A stretch of DNA of 64,000 nt from Actinomycetota bacterium. Its GTDB lineage: Bacteria; Actinomycetota; Thermoleophilia; Solirubrobacterales; Solirubrobacteraceae. The stretch's first letter is position 1. Every line of letters begins with the position of its first letter. Location of the stretch: assembly GCA_009699245.1 (NCBI GenBank), contig WLOQ01000007.1, positions 62,001-126,000 on the forward strand, given 5' to 3'. Position numbers and translations under genes: made by a program. Of this stretch, positions 16,963 to 42,941 are shown in pieces. The notes beneath the pieces are model-generated. The model saw only the letters and a list, made by a program, of their open reading frames with translations. It did no database searches and had not been told where the DNA came from.

Positions 16963-18336
16963 ATGGCCCGCCCAGCGACCGTCCACATCTGCTCGCAGTG
17001 CGGTCACCAGGAGGCCAAGTGGCACGGTCAGTGCCCCGGCTGCAGGGCGTGGAACACGCTCGTCGAAGAGCGGGCGCCTGAACCCGCTGGACGTGGGCGC
17101 GGCCTGCGCGCCGCCGGCGCCGCCGGCACACCGGTGCGTCTGCGCGACCTCGCGGCCGATCAGGCGCCGCGGATCCCGACCGGGATCGGCGAGCTCGATC
17201 GCCTGCTGGGCGGGGGGATCGTGCCCGGGTCGCTCGTCCTGCTCGGCGGGTCGCCGGGCATCGGAAAGTCCACGCTCACGACGATGGCGCTCGGACTGCT
17301 CCAGGGCGCCGGGAGGCGCACGCTCTACATCTCGGGTGAGGAGTCGGCCGCCCAGATCCGGCTGCGCGCCGAGCGGCTCGAGGCGGGCTCGGCTCCGGGC
17401 GCCCTCGACATCCCGATGCTCGCCGAGACCGACCTCGCCACCGTCCTCGCGACCATGGAGGCGGAGCGGCCCGAGGTCTGCGTCGTCGACTCCGTCCAGA
17501 CGCTCGCAGCGGGCGACCTCACGGGAGCCGCCGGCACCGTCGGTCAGGTGCGCGAGGTCGCCGGGCGGATCATGGAGGTCGCCAAGCGCAACGACACCGC
17601 CGTGATCCTCGTCGGCCACGTGACGAAGGACGGCGCCTTGGCGGGCCCGCGGGTCCTCGAGCACCTCGTCGACTGCGTCCTGCAGTTCGAGGGCGAGAAG
17701 GAGCGCACGTACCGCACGCTGCGCGCGCTCAAGAACCGCTTCGGCTCGACCAATGACGTCGGTGTCTTCGAGATGCGCGACGGGGGACTCGTCGAGGTCC
17801 TCGACGCGAGCGCCCGCTTCGTCGCTGAGGCCACGCGCGCGCCCGGCAGCGTCGTCCTCGCGGCTATGGAGGGGTCGCGCCCGCTCCTCGTCGAGGTGCA
17901 GGCGCTCGTATCGCCGAGCGAGCTCGTCCCGCCCCGGCGCGTCTGCGCCGGGATCGATCGCAACCGCCTCGCGCTCGTCCTCGCCGTCCTCGCACGGCAC
18001 GCGGGCGTGGGCACGGGCACCGCCGACGTCTTCGTCAACGTCGTCGGCGGCGTGCGGGTCGACGAGCCCGGCGCCGACCTCGCGATCGCCCTGGCGGTGG
18101 CGAGCGCGGCGCGCGGCGTGCCGCTCGGCGGGGAGGATGCGCGGGTGCCGGCGTGCGCCTTCGGGGAGATCGGCCTGACGGGGGAGCTGCGCACCGTGGC
18201 CCACCACGATCGCCGCACCGACGAGGCCGCGAAGTTCGGCCTGGGCATCGTGATCTCGCCGGATGTCGCGCCGACGCTGCGCGCGGCGCTCACGGCAGCG
18301 CTCGGACGGGCCTCGGGCGCCCGACGCGCAGCCTGA
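16963..18336 (+). CDS. radA: DNA repair protein RadA (Sms)
   Basis: RecA-like ATPase/helicase that helps branch migration in recombination. 457 residues: C4 zinc finger CSQCGHQ and CPGCRAW (Cys 10, 13, 24, 27), Walker A GGSPGIGKS (95-103), the RadA-specific KNRFGSTNDVGVFEM and a C-terminal Lon-protease-like domain. ATG 16963 is 9 nt after TAGGCT (16948-16953). disA follows; RadA is reported to bind and inhibit DisA in other bacteria. Confidence 0.97.
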   Translation: MARPATVHICSQCGHQEAKWHGQCPGCRAWNTLVEERAPEPAGRGRGLRAAGAAGTPVRLRDLAADQAPRIPTGIGELDRLLGGGIVPGSLVLLGGSPGIGKSTLTTMALGLLQGAGRRTLYISGEESAAQIRLRAERLEAGSAPGALDIPMLAETDLATVLATMEAERPEVCVVDSVQTLAAGDLTGAAGTVGQVREVAGRIMEVAKRNDTAVILVGHVTKDGALAGPRVLEHLVDCVLQFEGEKERTYRTLRALKNRFGSTNDVGVFEMRDGGLVEVLDASARFVAEATRAPGSVVLAAMEGSRPLLVEVQALVSPSELVPPRRVCAGIDRNRLALVLAVLARHAGVGTGTADVFVNVVGGVRVDEPGADLAIALAVASAARGVPLGGEDARVPACAFGEIGLTGELRTVAHHDRRTDEAAKFGLGIVISPDVAPTLRAALTAALGRASGARRAA

Positions 18337-18401
18337 CACACCGGTTTCAGGAAGCGGACGGCCGTCCCGCAAACCCTCAAGCTCTGGTAAAGTCCTCCGT
18401 G

Positions 18402-19514
18402 ATGGCGCAACGTAGCGGGGATGAATCACACGACCTTGAAGGTCGTCAGGAACCTCGCCTCGTCAAGTCTCTGGAGATGGTCGCGCCGGGGACGGCACTG
18501 CGCGAGGGCATCGACAGCATCCTGCGCGCCCGCACCGGAGCGCTGATCATCATCGGCGACACGGACGAGCTGAGCTTCCTCTACTCCGGCGGCATCAAGC
18601 TAGATATCGATTATTCGCCGGCATTTCTGTATCAAGTCGCAAAAATGGACGGCGCGATCTGCCTGAGCGCGAACGCGACGAAGCTGTCGATGTGCAACGT
18701 CCAGCTGATGCCGGACCCGACGATCCTGTCGCTCGAGACCGGAACCCGGCACCGCACGGCCGAGCGCGTCAGCAAGCAGACCGATGCGCTCGTGATCGCG
18801 GTCTCCGCCCGTCGCGACGTCGTCTCGCTCTACGTCGACGGCGCGAAGTACATCCTCGAGGACATTCCGACCGTCCTCGCCAAGGCGAACCAGGCGCTCG
18901 CGACGCTCGACAAGTACCGCGCGCGACTCGACCAGGTCTCGACACGGCTCACGGCGCTCGAGTTCGAGGGCGGCGCCACGCTCCACGACGTCCTCACGGT
19001 GCTTCAGCGGTCTGAGCTCGTCACCCGCATGGCGGTCGAGATCGAGCGCTACATCGTCGAGCTCGGCACCGAGGGTCGCCTGATCGAGATGCAGCTCGAG
19101 GAGACGATGGTCGGGACCGCCGCAGACAAGGCCGCGCTCGTGCGCGACTACCTCGTCGTCGACGGTGAGGAGGCGTTCGCCCAGGCGCTCGACCTGCTCG
19201 GCCGACTGCCGCACCAGGACCTGCTCGACTTTGGTCGGCTCGCCGAGATGCTCGGCTACGACCGCAAGCTCAACACGCTCGACTACCCCGTCTCGCCGCG
19301 GGGCTACCGCGTCCTCGGCCGCATTCCGCGACTGCCGAAGATCGCGGTGGCGAGCATCGTCCAGGCGATCGGGGGGCTCGACCAGCTCCTGGCCGCCGGC
19401 GATGGCGAACTCGAGGGGATCGAGGGGGTGGGTGAGCTCCGCGCGAAGGACATTCGCGAGGGCCTGCGCCGACTCCAGGAGATCAACCTCGTGGATCGGT
19501 ACCTGCAGACGTGA
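18402..19514 (+). CDS. disA: DNA integrity scanning protein DisA, diadenylate cyclase
   Basis: Makes the second messenger c-di-AMP from two ATP and reports DNA lesions. 370 residues: the N-terminal DAC domain has MDGAICLS and GTRHRTAER, the two signature motifs; a helical spine follows, then a C-terminal helix-hairpin-helix DNA-binding domain (GIEGVGELRAKDIREGL). The start is ATG 18402 (GTG 18399 is also in frame); TAAAGT at 18388-18393 lies 8 nt upstream. Codons from 18600 to 18647 are strikingly AT-rich compared with the rest of the gene. The product could act on the riboswitch at 42069-42188. Confidence 0.97.
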   Translation: MAQRSGDESHDLEGRQEPRLVKSLEMVAPGTALREGIDSILRARTGALIIIGDTDELSFLYSGGIKLDIDYSPAFLYQVAKMDGAICLSANATKLSMCNVQLMPDPTILSLETGTRHRTAERVSKQTDALVIAVSARRDVVSLYVDGAKYILEDIPTVLAKANQALATLDKYRARLDQVSTRLTALEFEGGATLHDVLTVLQRSELVTRMAVEIERYIVELGTEGRLIEMQLEETMVGTAADKAALVRDYLVVDGEEAFAQALDLLGRLPHQDLLDFGRLAEMLGYDRKLNTLDYPVSPRGYRVLGRIPRLPKIAVASIVQAIGGLDQLLAAGDGELEGIEGVGELRAKDIREGLRRLQEINLVDRYLQT

Positions 19515-42028: not shown

Positions 42029-42058
42029 TTGGTTCCGTCCGGGGGGCTCCGTTAGGGT
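42029..42058 (+). promoter_or_regulatory. promoter of the riboswitch - NlpC/P60 transcript
   Basis: TTGGTT (42029-42034), 18-nt spacer, TAGGGT (42053-42058). The predicted start near 42065 lies only 3-4 nt before the aptamer helix. Confidence 0.5.
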
Positions 42059-42068
42059 CGCGTCAACA

Positions 42069-42188
42069 ATGCCGAATCTCCGTCCATGCGGAGACCGGGG
42101 GACCCAAGAGTTGGGGCGAGTTCCATGGTGATGTCCATGGGAGGCGCGACTCGTTGAGCGCCAGCCCGTCAGCTAACCCCGGAGGCGT
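42069..42188 (+). ncRNA. c-di-AMP riboswitch (ydaO/yuaA type)
   Basis: The core matches the ydaO consensus closely: GGGGGACCCAA (42097-42107) with TTGGGG (42111-42116), and CCCGTCAGCTAACC (42165-42178) followed by GGAGGCGT. Supporting helices can be drawn: P1 ATGCC / GGCGT (42069-42073 / 42184-42188), TCTCCG / CGGAGA (42077-42094), CCATGG / CCATGG (42123-42140) and GGCGC / GCGCC (42143-42162). Ligand c-di-AMP is made by DisA. In actinomycetes these aptamers commonly control cell-wall hydrolase genes, as here. There is no separate terminator: the helix ends 15 nt before the GTG. Confidence 0.93.
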
Positions 42189-42203
42189 CGAAACGACCCA
42201 TCT

Positions 42204-42941
42204 GTGCTCCGTCGCGCAACGACCCTCTGCACCCTCGCCCTCGGCATCGCCGCGGTGGCTCCGGCCGGGGCATGGGCCGCCTCCGTCAACGGGGCCGCCT
42301 CGCCCGAGACCGGCGCCGGTGCGGTCCAGCCGAAGACGCCGACCGCCAAGCGCAATGCCGGCGCGAAGAAGAAGGTCGCGAAGCAGAAAGTCGCGCGCCC
42401 GAAGGTCGTGAAGCCGGTCGCGCCGCCCGTCAAGCGGTCCGTGATCGCTCAGGGGCAGGGCGTCGTCGGTGGTCAGGCGTTCGGCGAGGAGAACCTCGCC
42501 ACGACGCCGACCGTTCCCGGTGACGTCGCCGTGCTGCTGCCGACCGGGCTCGCAGCGGCGCCTGAGAATGCGCCAATCGAGGTGCAGCGCGCGATCTGGG
42601 CCGCCAACCGGATCGTGGGGAAGCCCTACATCTACGGCGGCGGGCATCGGCGCTTTGAGGACCGGGGCTACGACTGCTCGGGCACCGTGTCGTATGCGCT
42701 GCACGGCGGCGACCTCATCGACACGCCGATGGACTCCTCCGACTACATGCGCTGGGGCCTGCGCGGCCGGGGTGCCTGGATCACCGTGTATACGAATCCG
42801 GGCCATGCATTCGTCGTGATCGCTGGCCTGCGGCTCGACACGAGCGCCGCCGGCGACCCGGAGGGCGGCAAGGGCCCCCGCTGGCGCCCGACGCTGCGCA
42901 GCACCAGCGGGTATCGCGCCCGCCACCTCGGCAACCTCTGA
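42204..42941 (+). CDS. secreted NlpC/P60-type peptidoglycan hydrolase
   Basis: 245 residues: signal peptide (1-25), a Lys/Ala/Pro-rich linker (about 47-79) and a C-terminal NlpC/P60-like domain with catalytic Cys158 in YDCSG and His201 in NPGHAFVVI. This domain cuts peptide links in peptidoglycan. GTG 42204 is the only start that keeps the Arg-Arg signal-peptide n-region. No Shine-Dalgarno lies between the aptamer and the start, but GGAGG at 42181-42185 is within the riboswitch. Expected behaviour: low hydrolase when c-di-AMP is high. Confidence 0.87.
   Translation: MLRRATTLCTLALGIAAVAPAGAWAASVNGAASPETGAGAVQPKTPTAKRNAGAKKKVAKQKVARPKVVKPVAPPVKRSVIAQGQGVVGGQAFGEENLATTPTVPGDVAVLLPTGLAAAPENAPIEVQRAIWAANRIVGKPYIYGGGHRRFEDRGYDCSGTVSYALHGGDLIDTPMDSSDYMRWGLRGRGAWITVYTNPGHAFVVIAGLRLDTSAAGDPEGGKGPRWRPTLRSTSGYRARHLGNL

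What the first reader, a model, noticed from the sequence alone, without database searches (positions are those of the whole stretch)
42029..42230. c-di-AMP riboswitch that ends at the start codon of an NlpC/P60 hydrolase
The ydaO-type aptamer (42069-42188) is nearly the whole leader. The likely promoter starts transcription 3-4 nt before its first helix, and its last helix ends 15 nt before the GTG, with no room for a terminator and no Shine-Dalgarno outside the aptamer. GGAGG (42181-42185) is inside it. So ligand binding may block ribosome entry directly, unlike the terminator type known from Streptomyces and Bacillus. DisA, the c-di-AMP synthase, is 24 kb away. Inference: c-di-AMP, which DisA lowers after DNA damage, gates cell-wall cutting.
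Basis: partly seen in the sequence, partly recalled or inferred. Interest (0 to 1): 0.75.

Follow-up and report, generated by a model that had tools for sequence, protein, structure and literature searches.

The report
c-di-AMP riboswitch abutting nlpC start
A genuine c-di-AMP-sensing RNA switch sits right at the start of a cell-wall-cutting enzyme gene and most likely stops ribosomes from starting; this kind of switch is already known from a relative, but comparing many genomes shows what it blocks with, and that here the usual ribosome-binding sequence is missing.

Summary
Window 42060-42202 (+) matches Rfam RF00379 at 70.1 bits (cut-off 38, E 3e-14). P1 ends at 42187, 16 nt before the GTG of a divergent NlpC/P60 gene. 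No terminator was found, and no Shine-Dalgarno (SD) lies after P1. DisA (18504-18842) is the only diadenylate cyclase in the genome.

A translational OFF switch is the best reading, but the layout is not unusual: in sampled Actinomycetota, Streptomyces-like ones included, most copies put the start codon within about 35 nt of the aptamer core. Translational control of nlpC by c-di-AMP was reported in Corynebacterium glutamicum (PMC9960051). GGAGG is a by-product of the aptamer consensus, not conserved in orthologs.

The better-supported blocker is the known ydaO loop-tail pseudoknot. In Solirubrobacterales its 3' strand is normally the SD (loop CUCUUUC with GAAAGAG), and the strands covary. In the window's genus the SD has become CGAACGA and the loop UCGUUC: pairing kept, SD lost. 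In the window itself only five in-register pairs remain, and a local hairpin competes. How initiation is blocked there is inferred, not shown.

New member of a known kind; interest 0.4.

The parts
42029..42034 (+). TTGGTT, -35-like hexamer (weak), 18 nt before the -10
   Evidence: sequence; inference
42053..42058 (+). TAGGGT, -10-like hexamer; start of transcription inferred about 42064-42066
   Evidence: TANNNT at this distance from P1 in 53/79 copies vs 4.2 shuffled; position in window
42070..42187 (+). c-di-AMP (ydaO-class) aptamer, P1 to P1; Rfam span 42060-42202
   Evidence: RF00379, 70.1 bits, E 3.2e-14
42070..42073 (+). P1 5' strand UGCC
   Evidence: cmscan alignment
42184..42187 (+). 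P1 3' strand GGCG
   Evidence: cmscan alignment
42143..42162 (+). last aptamer hairpin, stem GGCGC/GCGCC, loop 42148-42157 GACUCGUUGA
   Evidence: alignment and fold
42151..42155 (+). pseudoknot loop strand UCGUU
   Evidence: in register with the covarying pseudoknot of relatives
42192..42196 (+). pseudoknot tail strand AACGA (position of the SD in most relatives)
42181..42185 (+). GGAGG spanning the P2/P1 3' strands; by-product of the aptamer consensus, not conserved among orthologs
42184..42199 (+). possible competing hairpin GG(C)GUCG-AAA-CGACCC, -4.4 kcal/mol, excludes P1 and the pseudoknot
   Evidence: found only in the window sequence (an analogous hairpin is inferred in L035/L064)
42204..42941 (+). 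nlpC-like gene, secreted divergent NlpC/P60 peptidase (245 aa, GTG start)
   Evidence: ORF; ortholog starts and signal peptides; PF00877 sub-threshold in 13/13 orthologs; fold match
18504..18842 (+). DAC domain of DisA, the only c-di-AMP synthase found in the genome
   Evidence: PF02457, E 2.7e-27

Best explanation
This is a c-di-AMP (ydaO-class) riboswitch that turns translation of a secreted NlpC/P60 wall peptidase off. RNA polymerase starts just before P1, so the 5' leader is almost only aptamer. When c-di-AMP binds, P1 and the loop-tail pseudoknot close; in most relatives the pseudoknot's 3' strand is the SD itself. In the window's genus that strand has lost its SD character (CGAACGA) but the loop has changed to match it, so the structure still lies over the 16-nt stretch where the 30S subunit must land before the GTG. 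Without ligand, P1 and the pseudoknot open and ribosomes can start. Shown by computation: the aptamer, the layout, no terminator, the covarying pseudoknot in the family. Inferred: ligand binding, translation as the controlled step, start of transcription, GTG as start, and that the weak five-pair pseudoknot of the window (or P1 plus the adjacent hairpin) is enough to block.
For: RF00379 70.1 bits. Promoter at a fixed distance before P1. No terminator, 16 nt between P1 and GTG. Relatives keep the start codon 12-30 nt after the core. Pseudoknot: 93.7% of cells paired vs 83.8% shuffled (0/500), covariation score 0.331 vs 0.169, slid registers 48-63% paired; own loop matches own tail better than swapped tails, 5.9 vs 4.9 bp over 141 copies and 5.1 vs 3.9 in the 65 loops without CUCUUU; loop CGUU and tail AACG change together in 4.1 of 5 independent pairs, never apart in the other direction. 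Same pairing readable in the crystallised ydaO RNA (PMC5393176). Precedent: C. glutamicum nlpC riboswitch changes reporter protein without changing mRNA (PMC9960051). One DAC in the genome.
Against: The window's own pseudoknot is the weakest of its clade (5 bp, -5.4 kcal/mol) and its close relative L035 appears to have lost it. S. coelicolor rpfA, with a similar layout, is reported to terminate transcription in vitro (PMC10117811). No expression or binding data. The leader's fold is not unusually stable (z -0.74).
Confidence: 0.68

Rival explanations
1. Transcription attenuation without a canonical terminator, as reported for S. coelicolor rpfA: ligand-bound aptamer makes RNA polymerase stop, and the closeness to the start codon is incidental.
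For: S. coelicolor rpfA leader lacks a canonical terminator yet ligand causes termination in vitro (PMC9960051 discussion, PMC10117811).
Against: No U-run or terminator here; the SD as pseudoknot strand in relatives makes sense for translation, not for termination; C. glutamicum nlpC mRNA did not change.
Confidence: 0.15
2. One reading: GGAGG (42181-42185) is the SD and is masked directly by P2/P1; a hairpin GUCG-AAA-CGAC could shorten the 18-nt distance to about 7 nt.
For: GGAGG binds anti-SD at -9.5 kcal/mol; hairpin predicted; four Patulibacter-like relatives have GGAGG 8-14 nt before ATG and no other SD.
Against: GGAGG present in 3 of 10 window-type copies only; base x is G in 27/133 copies, many with another SD; hairpin not conserved; 18 nt is too long for ordinary SD use.
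Confidence: 0.15
3. A decaying switch: in the window and L035 the pseudoknot has eroded, and the aptamer may bind ligand but control the gene weakly or not at all.
For: 5 bp left in the window, 4 bp at most in L035, tail SD lost.
Against: Aptamer core fully conserved and 70 bits; five in-register WC pairs kept; other genus members keep 6-7 compensated pairs.
Confidence: 0.12

Closest known systems
C. glutamicum nlpC (cg2402) c-di-AMP riboswitch (PMC9960051)
   Same: Same aptamer class, same kind of target (NlpC/P60 wall peptidase), no terminator, control reported at translation, DisA as synthase.
   Different: C. glutamicum nlpC has a GGAG ribosome site and its pseudoknot was only suggested; the window-type copies lack an SD and show compensated pseudoknot strands.
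B. subtilis ydaO/kimA and crystallised Thermoanaerobacter ydaO RNAs (RF00379; 4QLM)
   Same: Aptamer fold and loop-tail pseudoknot (CUCCUUC with GAAGGAG readable in the crystallised sequence, PMC5393176).
   Different: ydaO/kimA uses a terminator downstream and controls a K+ importer; here the gene starts at once and encodes a wall hydrolase.
S. coelicolor rpfA riboswitch (PMC10117811)
   Same: Actinobacterial cell-wall hydrolase leader with the same class of aptamer; Streptomyces-like copies examined here also have the start codon about 30 nt after the core.
   Different: Reported to act on transcription.

Membership tests
RF00379 c-di-AMP riboswitch | Covariance-model match above the curated score | tested here: met
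   70.1 bits vs 38
RF00379 c-di-AMP riboswitch | Conserved junction and core nucleotides (CCGAAUC, GGGGGACCC, GUCAGCUAACC) | tested here: met
   alignment of 44 copies
RF00379 c-di-AMP riboswitch | Loop-tail pseudoknot of the solved structures | tested here: inconclusive
   covaries strongly in relatives; window keeps 5 in-register pairs, L035 has lost it
RF00379 c-di-AMP riboswitch | Binds c-di-AMP | not testable with these tools
   needs in-line probing or equivalent
Translational (ribosome-occluding) riboswitch | No terminator; structure covers the initiation region | tested here: met
Translational (ribosome-occluding) riboswitch | Sequestered SD | tested here: not met
   no SD after P1 in the window; GGAGG inside the aptamer is 18 nt away and not conserved
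Translational (ribosome-occluding) riboswitch | Protein changes with ligand while mRNA does not | not testable with these tools
   reporter assay needed
NlpC/P60 peptidase | Pfam PF00877 above gathering score | tested here: not met
   18.5 bits vs 23; but 13 of 13 orthologs hit below or near threshold, best E 2e-4
NlpC/P60 peptidase | Fold and catalytic Cys/His | tested here: met
   C158 and H201 invariant in 38 sequences; model matches C. difficile autolysin Acd24020, Cg1735, RipB, MepS at probability 1.00

The most novel reading that the evidence does not exclude
A c-di-AMP riboswitch that blocks initiation without a Shine-Dalgarno: the pseudoknot's 3' strand drifted away from SD function while the loop co-evolved to keep pairing, so the pseudoknot itself (not SD masking) closes the ribosome landing site. 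The genus copies do not form one clade of the gene tree (p-AU 0.006), so this may have happened more than once.
Probability: 0.4. Interest if true: 0.55.

Novelty: new member of a known kind. Interest (0 to 1): 0.4.

Why it matters
How actinobacterial c-di-AMP riboswitches act has been argued both ways (termination in Streptomyces, translation in Corynebacterium). The comparative result gives a concrete, testable expression platform: the aptamer's own pseudoknot strand is the Shine-Dalgarno in most Solirubrobacterales copies, and swapping loop and tail bases should abolish and restore control. The window-type copies separate two things that are normally fused, pseudoknot closure and SD masking, and so could show which one stops the ribosome. 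All four copies in this small genome precede wall proteins, so c-di-AMP appears to be tied mainly to wall cutting in this lineage.

Tried and rejected
GGAGG as dedicated SD: rejected as the general explanation. Terminator: none found; the same scanner also found none in two long-leader copies (L147, L150), so it gives no positive control. Single-sequence structure prediction of NlpC failed (pLDDT 35); the alignment-based one worked. 16S rRNA of the genome is missing from the assembly, so its anti-SD was assumed to be the usual CACCUCCUUUCU. Minimum-free-energy folding of the leader is not better than shuffles and cannot show pseudoknots. Single origin of the CGAACGA type in the genus: rejected by the AU test, but on only 129 columns and with a group chosen after the sequences had been seen. 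The primary papers of 2010-2015 on ydaO were not held in the library. SD usage across the rest of the genome was not measured.

Full report
What is there. The only cis-regulatory RNA that Rfam finds in the window is a c-di-AMP riboswitch aptamer at 42060-42202 on the + strand, 70.1 bits against a curated cut-off of 38, E 3.2e-14, complete over the model. P1 pairs 42070-42073 with 42184-42187. The next gene starts with GTG at 42204, 16 nt after P1.

The gene. The 245-aa product is below the Pfam cut-off for NLPC_P60 (18.5 vs 23 bits), but all 13 orthologs scanned hit that family and no other consistently. An alignment-based AlphaFold model (pLDDT above 90 over the domain) matches NlpC/P60 peptidases in the PDB, among them C. 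difficile autolysin Acd24020, C. glutamicum Cg1735, M. tuberculosis RipB and E. coli MepS. Cys158 and His201 are invariant in 38 relatives. The N-terminus reads as a signal peptide, in the window and in the orthologs, directly from the proposed start codons, which supports GTG 42204.

The genome. It is a 1.95-Mb assembly whose named relatives are Solirubrobacteraceae metagenome genomes. It holds four RF00379 copies, and all four precede secreted wall proteins: one RlpA-like with a peptidoglycan-binding domain, two peptidoglycan-binding plus NlpC-like, and the window gene. All 61 relatives searched carry the family, with 1 to 12 copies. One diadenylate cyclase domain exists, in DisA at window 18504-18842.

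Promoter. Aligned on the first base of P1, 53 of 79 non-identical copies have TANNNT 13-19 nt upstream, against 4.2 in shuffles. The window has TAGGGT there.

Layout in relatives. Among 80 named loci encoding relatives of this protein, nearly all that have the aptamer place the start codon 12-30 nt after the conserved core CCCGUCAGCUAACCCCG. In copies from across the phylum, including Streptomyces-like 8-10 Mb genomes, most also start 20-35 nt after the core, while about six have long leaders. So 'no room for a terminator' is the usual actinobacterial layout of the wall-hydrolase copies and not a peculiarity of this window.

Pseudoknot. The loop of the last aptamer hairpin reads CUCUUUC in most Solirubrobacterales copies, and the stretch just after P1 reads GAAAGAG, which is also the SD. 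The pairing covaries: 93.7% of cells pair against 83.8% in shuffles (0 of 500), with the covariation score doubled, and slid registers fall to 48-63%. Over 141 copies a loop fits its own tail better than another copy's tail (5.9 vs 4.9 bp); among the 65 loops without CUCUUU the figures are 5.1 vs 3.9, and none of 300 shuffles reached 4.4. This is not a new structural element: the crystallised ydaO sequence printed in PMC5393176 contains CUCCUUC and GAAGGAG in the same places, and that paper mentions the pseudoknot. A review files ydaO among riboswitches whose docked expression platform hides the ribosome site (PMC10907184), and the C. glutamicum paper suggested a CUCC-GGAG pseudoknot (PMC9960051). 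What is added here is covariation evidence, on a wide set, that the SD is the pseudoknot strand.

The window's own version. In the window's genus the tail is CGAACGA, with no SD (anti-SD energy -0.3 to -3.8 kcal/mol, against -8.6 to -12.5 elsewhere), and the loop has changed to UCGUUC. Loop CGUU and tail AACG change together in about four of five independent pairs on the gene tree and never in opposite directions (five pairs are too few for significance at 0.05). The genus copies are not one clade of the gene tree (p-AU 0.006), though only 129 columns were available and the group was named after the sequences had been seen. In the window itself five pairs remain, UCGUU 42151-42155 with AACGA 42192-42196, exactly in register but weak (-5.4 kcal/mol). 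A hairpin at 42184-42199 (-4.4 kcal/mol) excludes both P1 and the pseudoknot. The close relative L035 has lost the pseudoknot and can form a different local hairpin at the same place (inspection and 52 sequences). These last two points rest on two sequences and are leads only.

It comes from CCCCG-x-AGGC with x = G. x is G in 27 of 133 copies, including many that have a normal SD downstream. Among ten window-type copies three have it. In the window it lies 18 nt from the start. It is therefore unlikely to be the conserved ribosome site.

Mechanism. Most likely ligand closes P1 and the pseudoknot over the landing site of the 30S subunit, so that the peptidase is made only when c-di-AMP is low. 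Ligand binding, the level of control and the direction (OFF) are inferred from the class and from C. glutamicum. The proposed link to DNA damage through DisA was not tested and is not needed.

Verdict. A well-formed new member of a known kind (translational c-di-AMP riboswitch before an nlpC gene), with an interesting local twist: pairing kept while the SD is lost.

Noticed in passing
upstream of aptamers, e.g. L098, L104, L110, L121, L124, L127 about 40 nt before P1; own-genome L004 at -50: A palindrome TGCA-N8-TGCA (often TGCAA-N6-TTGCA) overlaps the -35 region in 19 of 106 copies against 0.09 in shuffles: a likely operator of a CRP-like or other dimeric regulator. The window copy lacks it.
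   Followed up: partly
L071, L077, L078, L079: Patulibacter-like copies have dropped the pseudoknot strands and the tail; ATG follows P1 by 7-13 nt and GGAGG inside the aptamer is the only possible SD.
   Followed up: partly
L113, L114, L120, L123, L126, L128, L131-L133, L135, L138, L139, L142: Close relatives of this peptidase occur in records named Verrucomicrobia, Chthoniobacterales or Spartobacteria, without the riboswitch core: gene transfer without the switch, or mis-binned contigs.
   Followed up: no
L067, L073: Two records titled Bifidobacterium breve carry typical Solirubrobacteraceae sequences and are probably misnamed metagenome genomes.
   Followed up: no
own genome, L001-L004: All four c-di-AMP riboswitches of this genome precede secreted wall proteins; none precedes a transporter. 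The L004 copy also lacks an SD and a pseudoknot.
   Followed up: partly
window 16963-19514: A RadA-like gene directly precedes disA, as in other actinobacteria (read from the translations, no family search done).
   Followed up: no
L144, L145, L147, L150, L152, L154: A minority of actinobacterial copies have their gene 144-284 nt after the core, so a different expression platform is likely; the simple scanner found no terminator in the two tested.
   Followed up: partly
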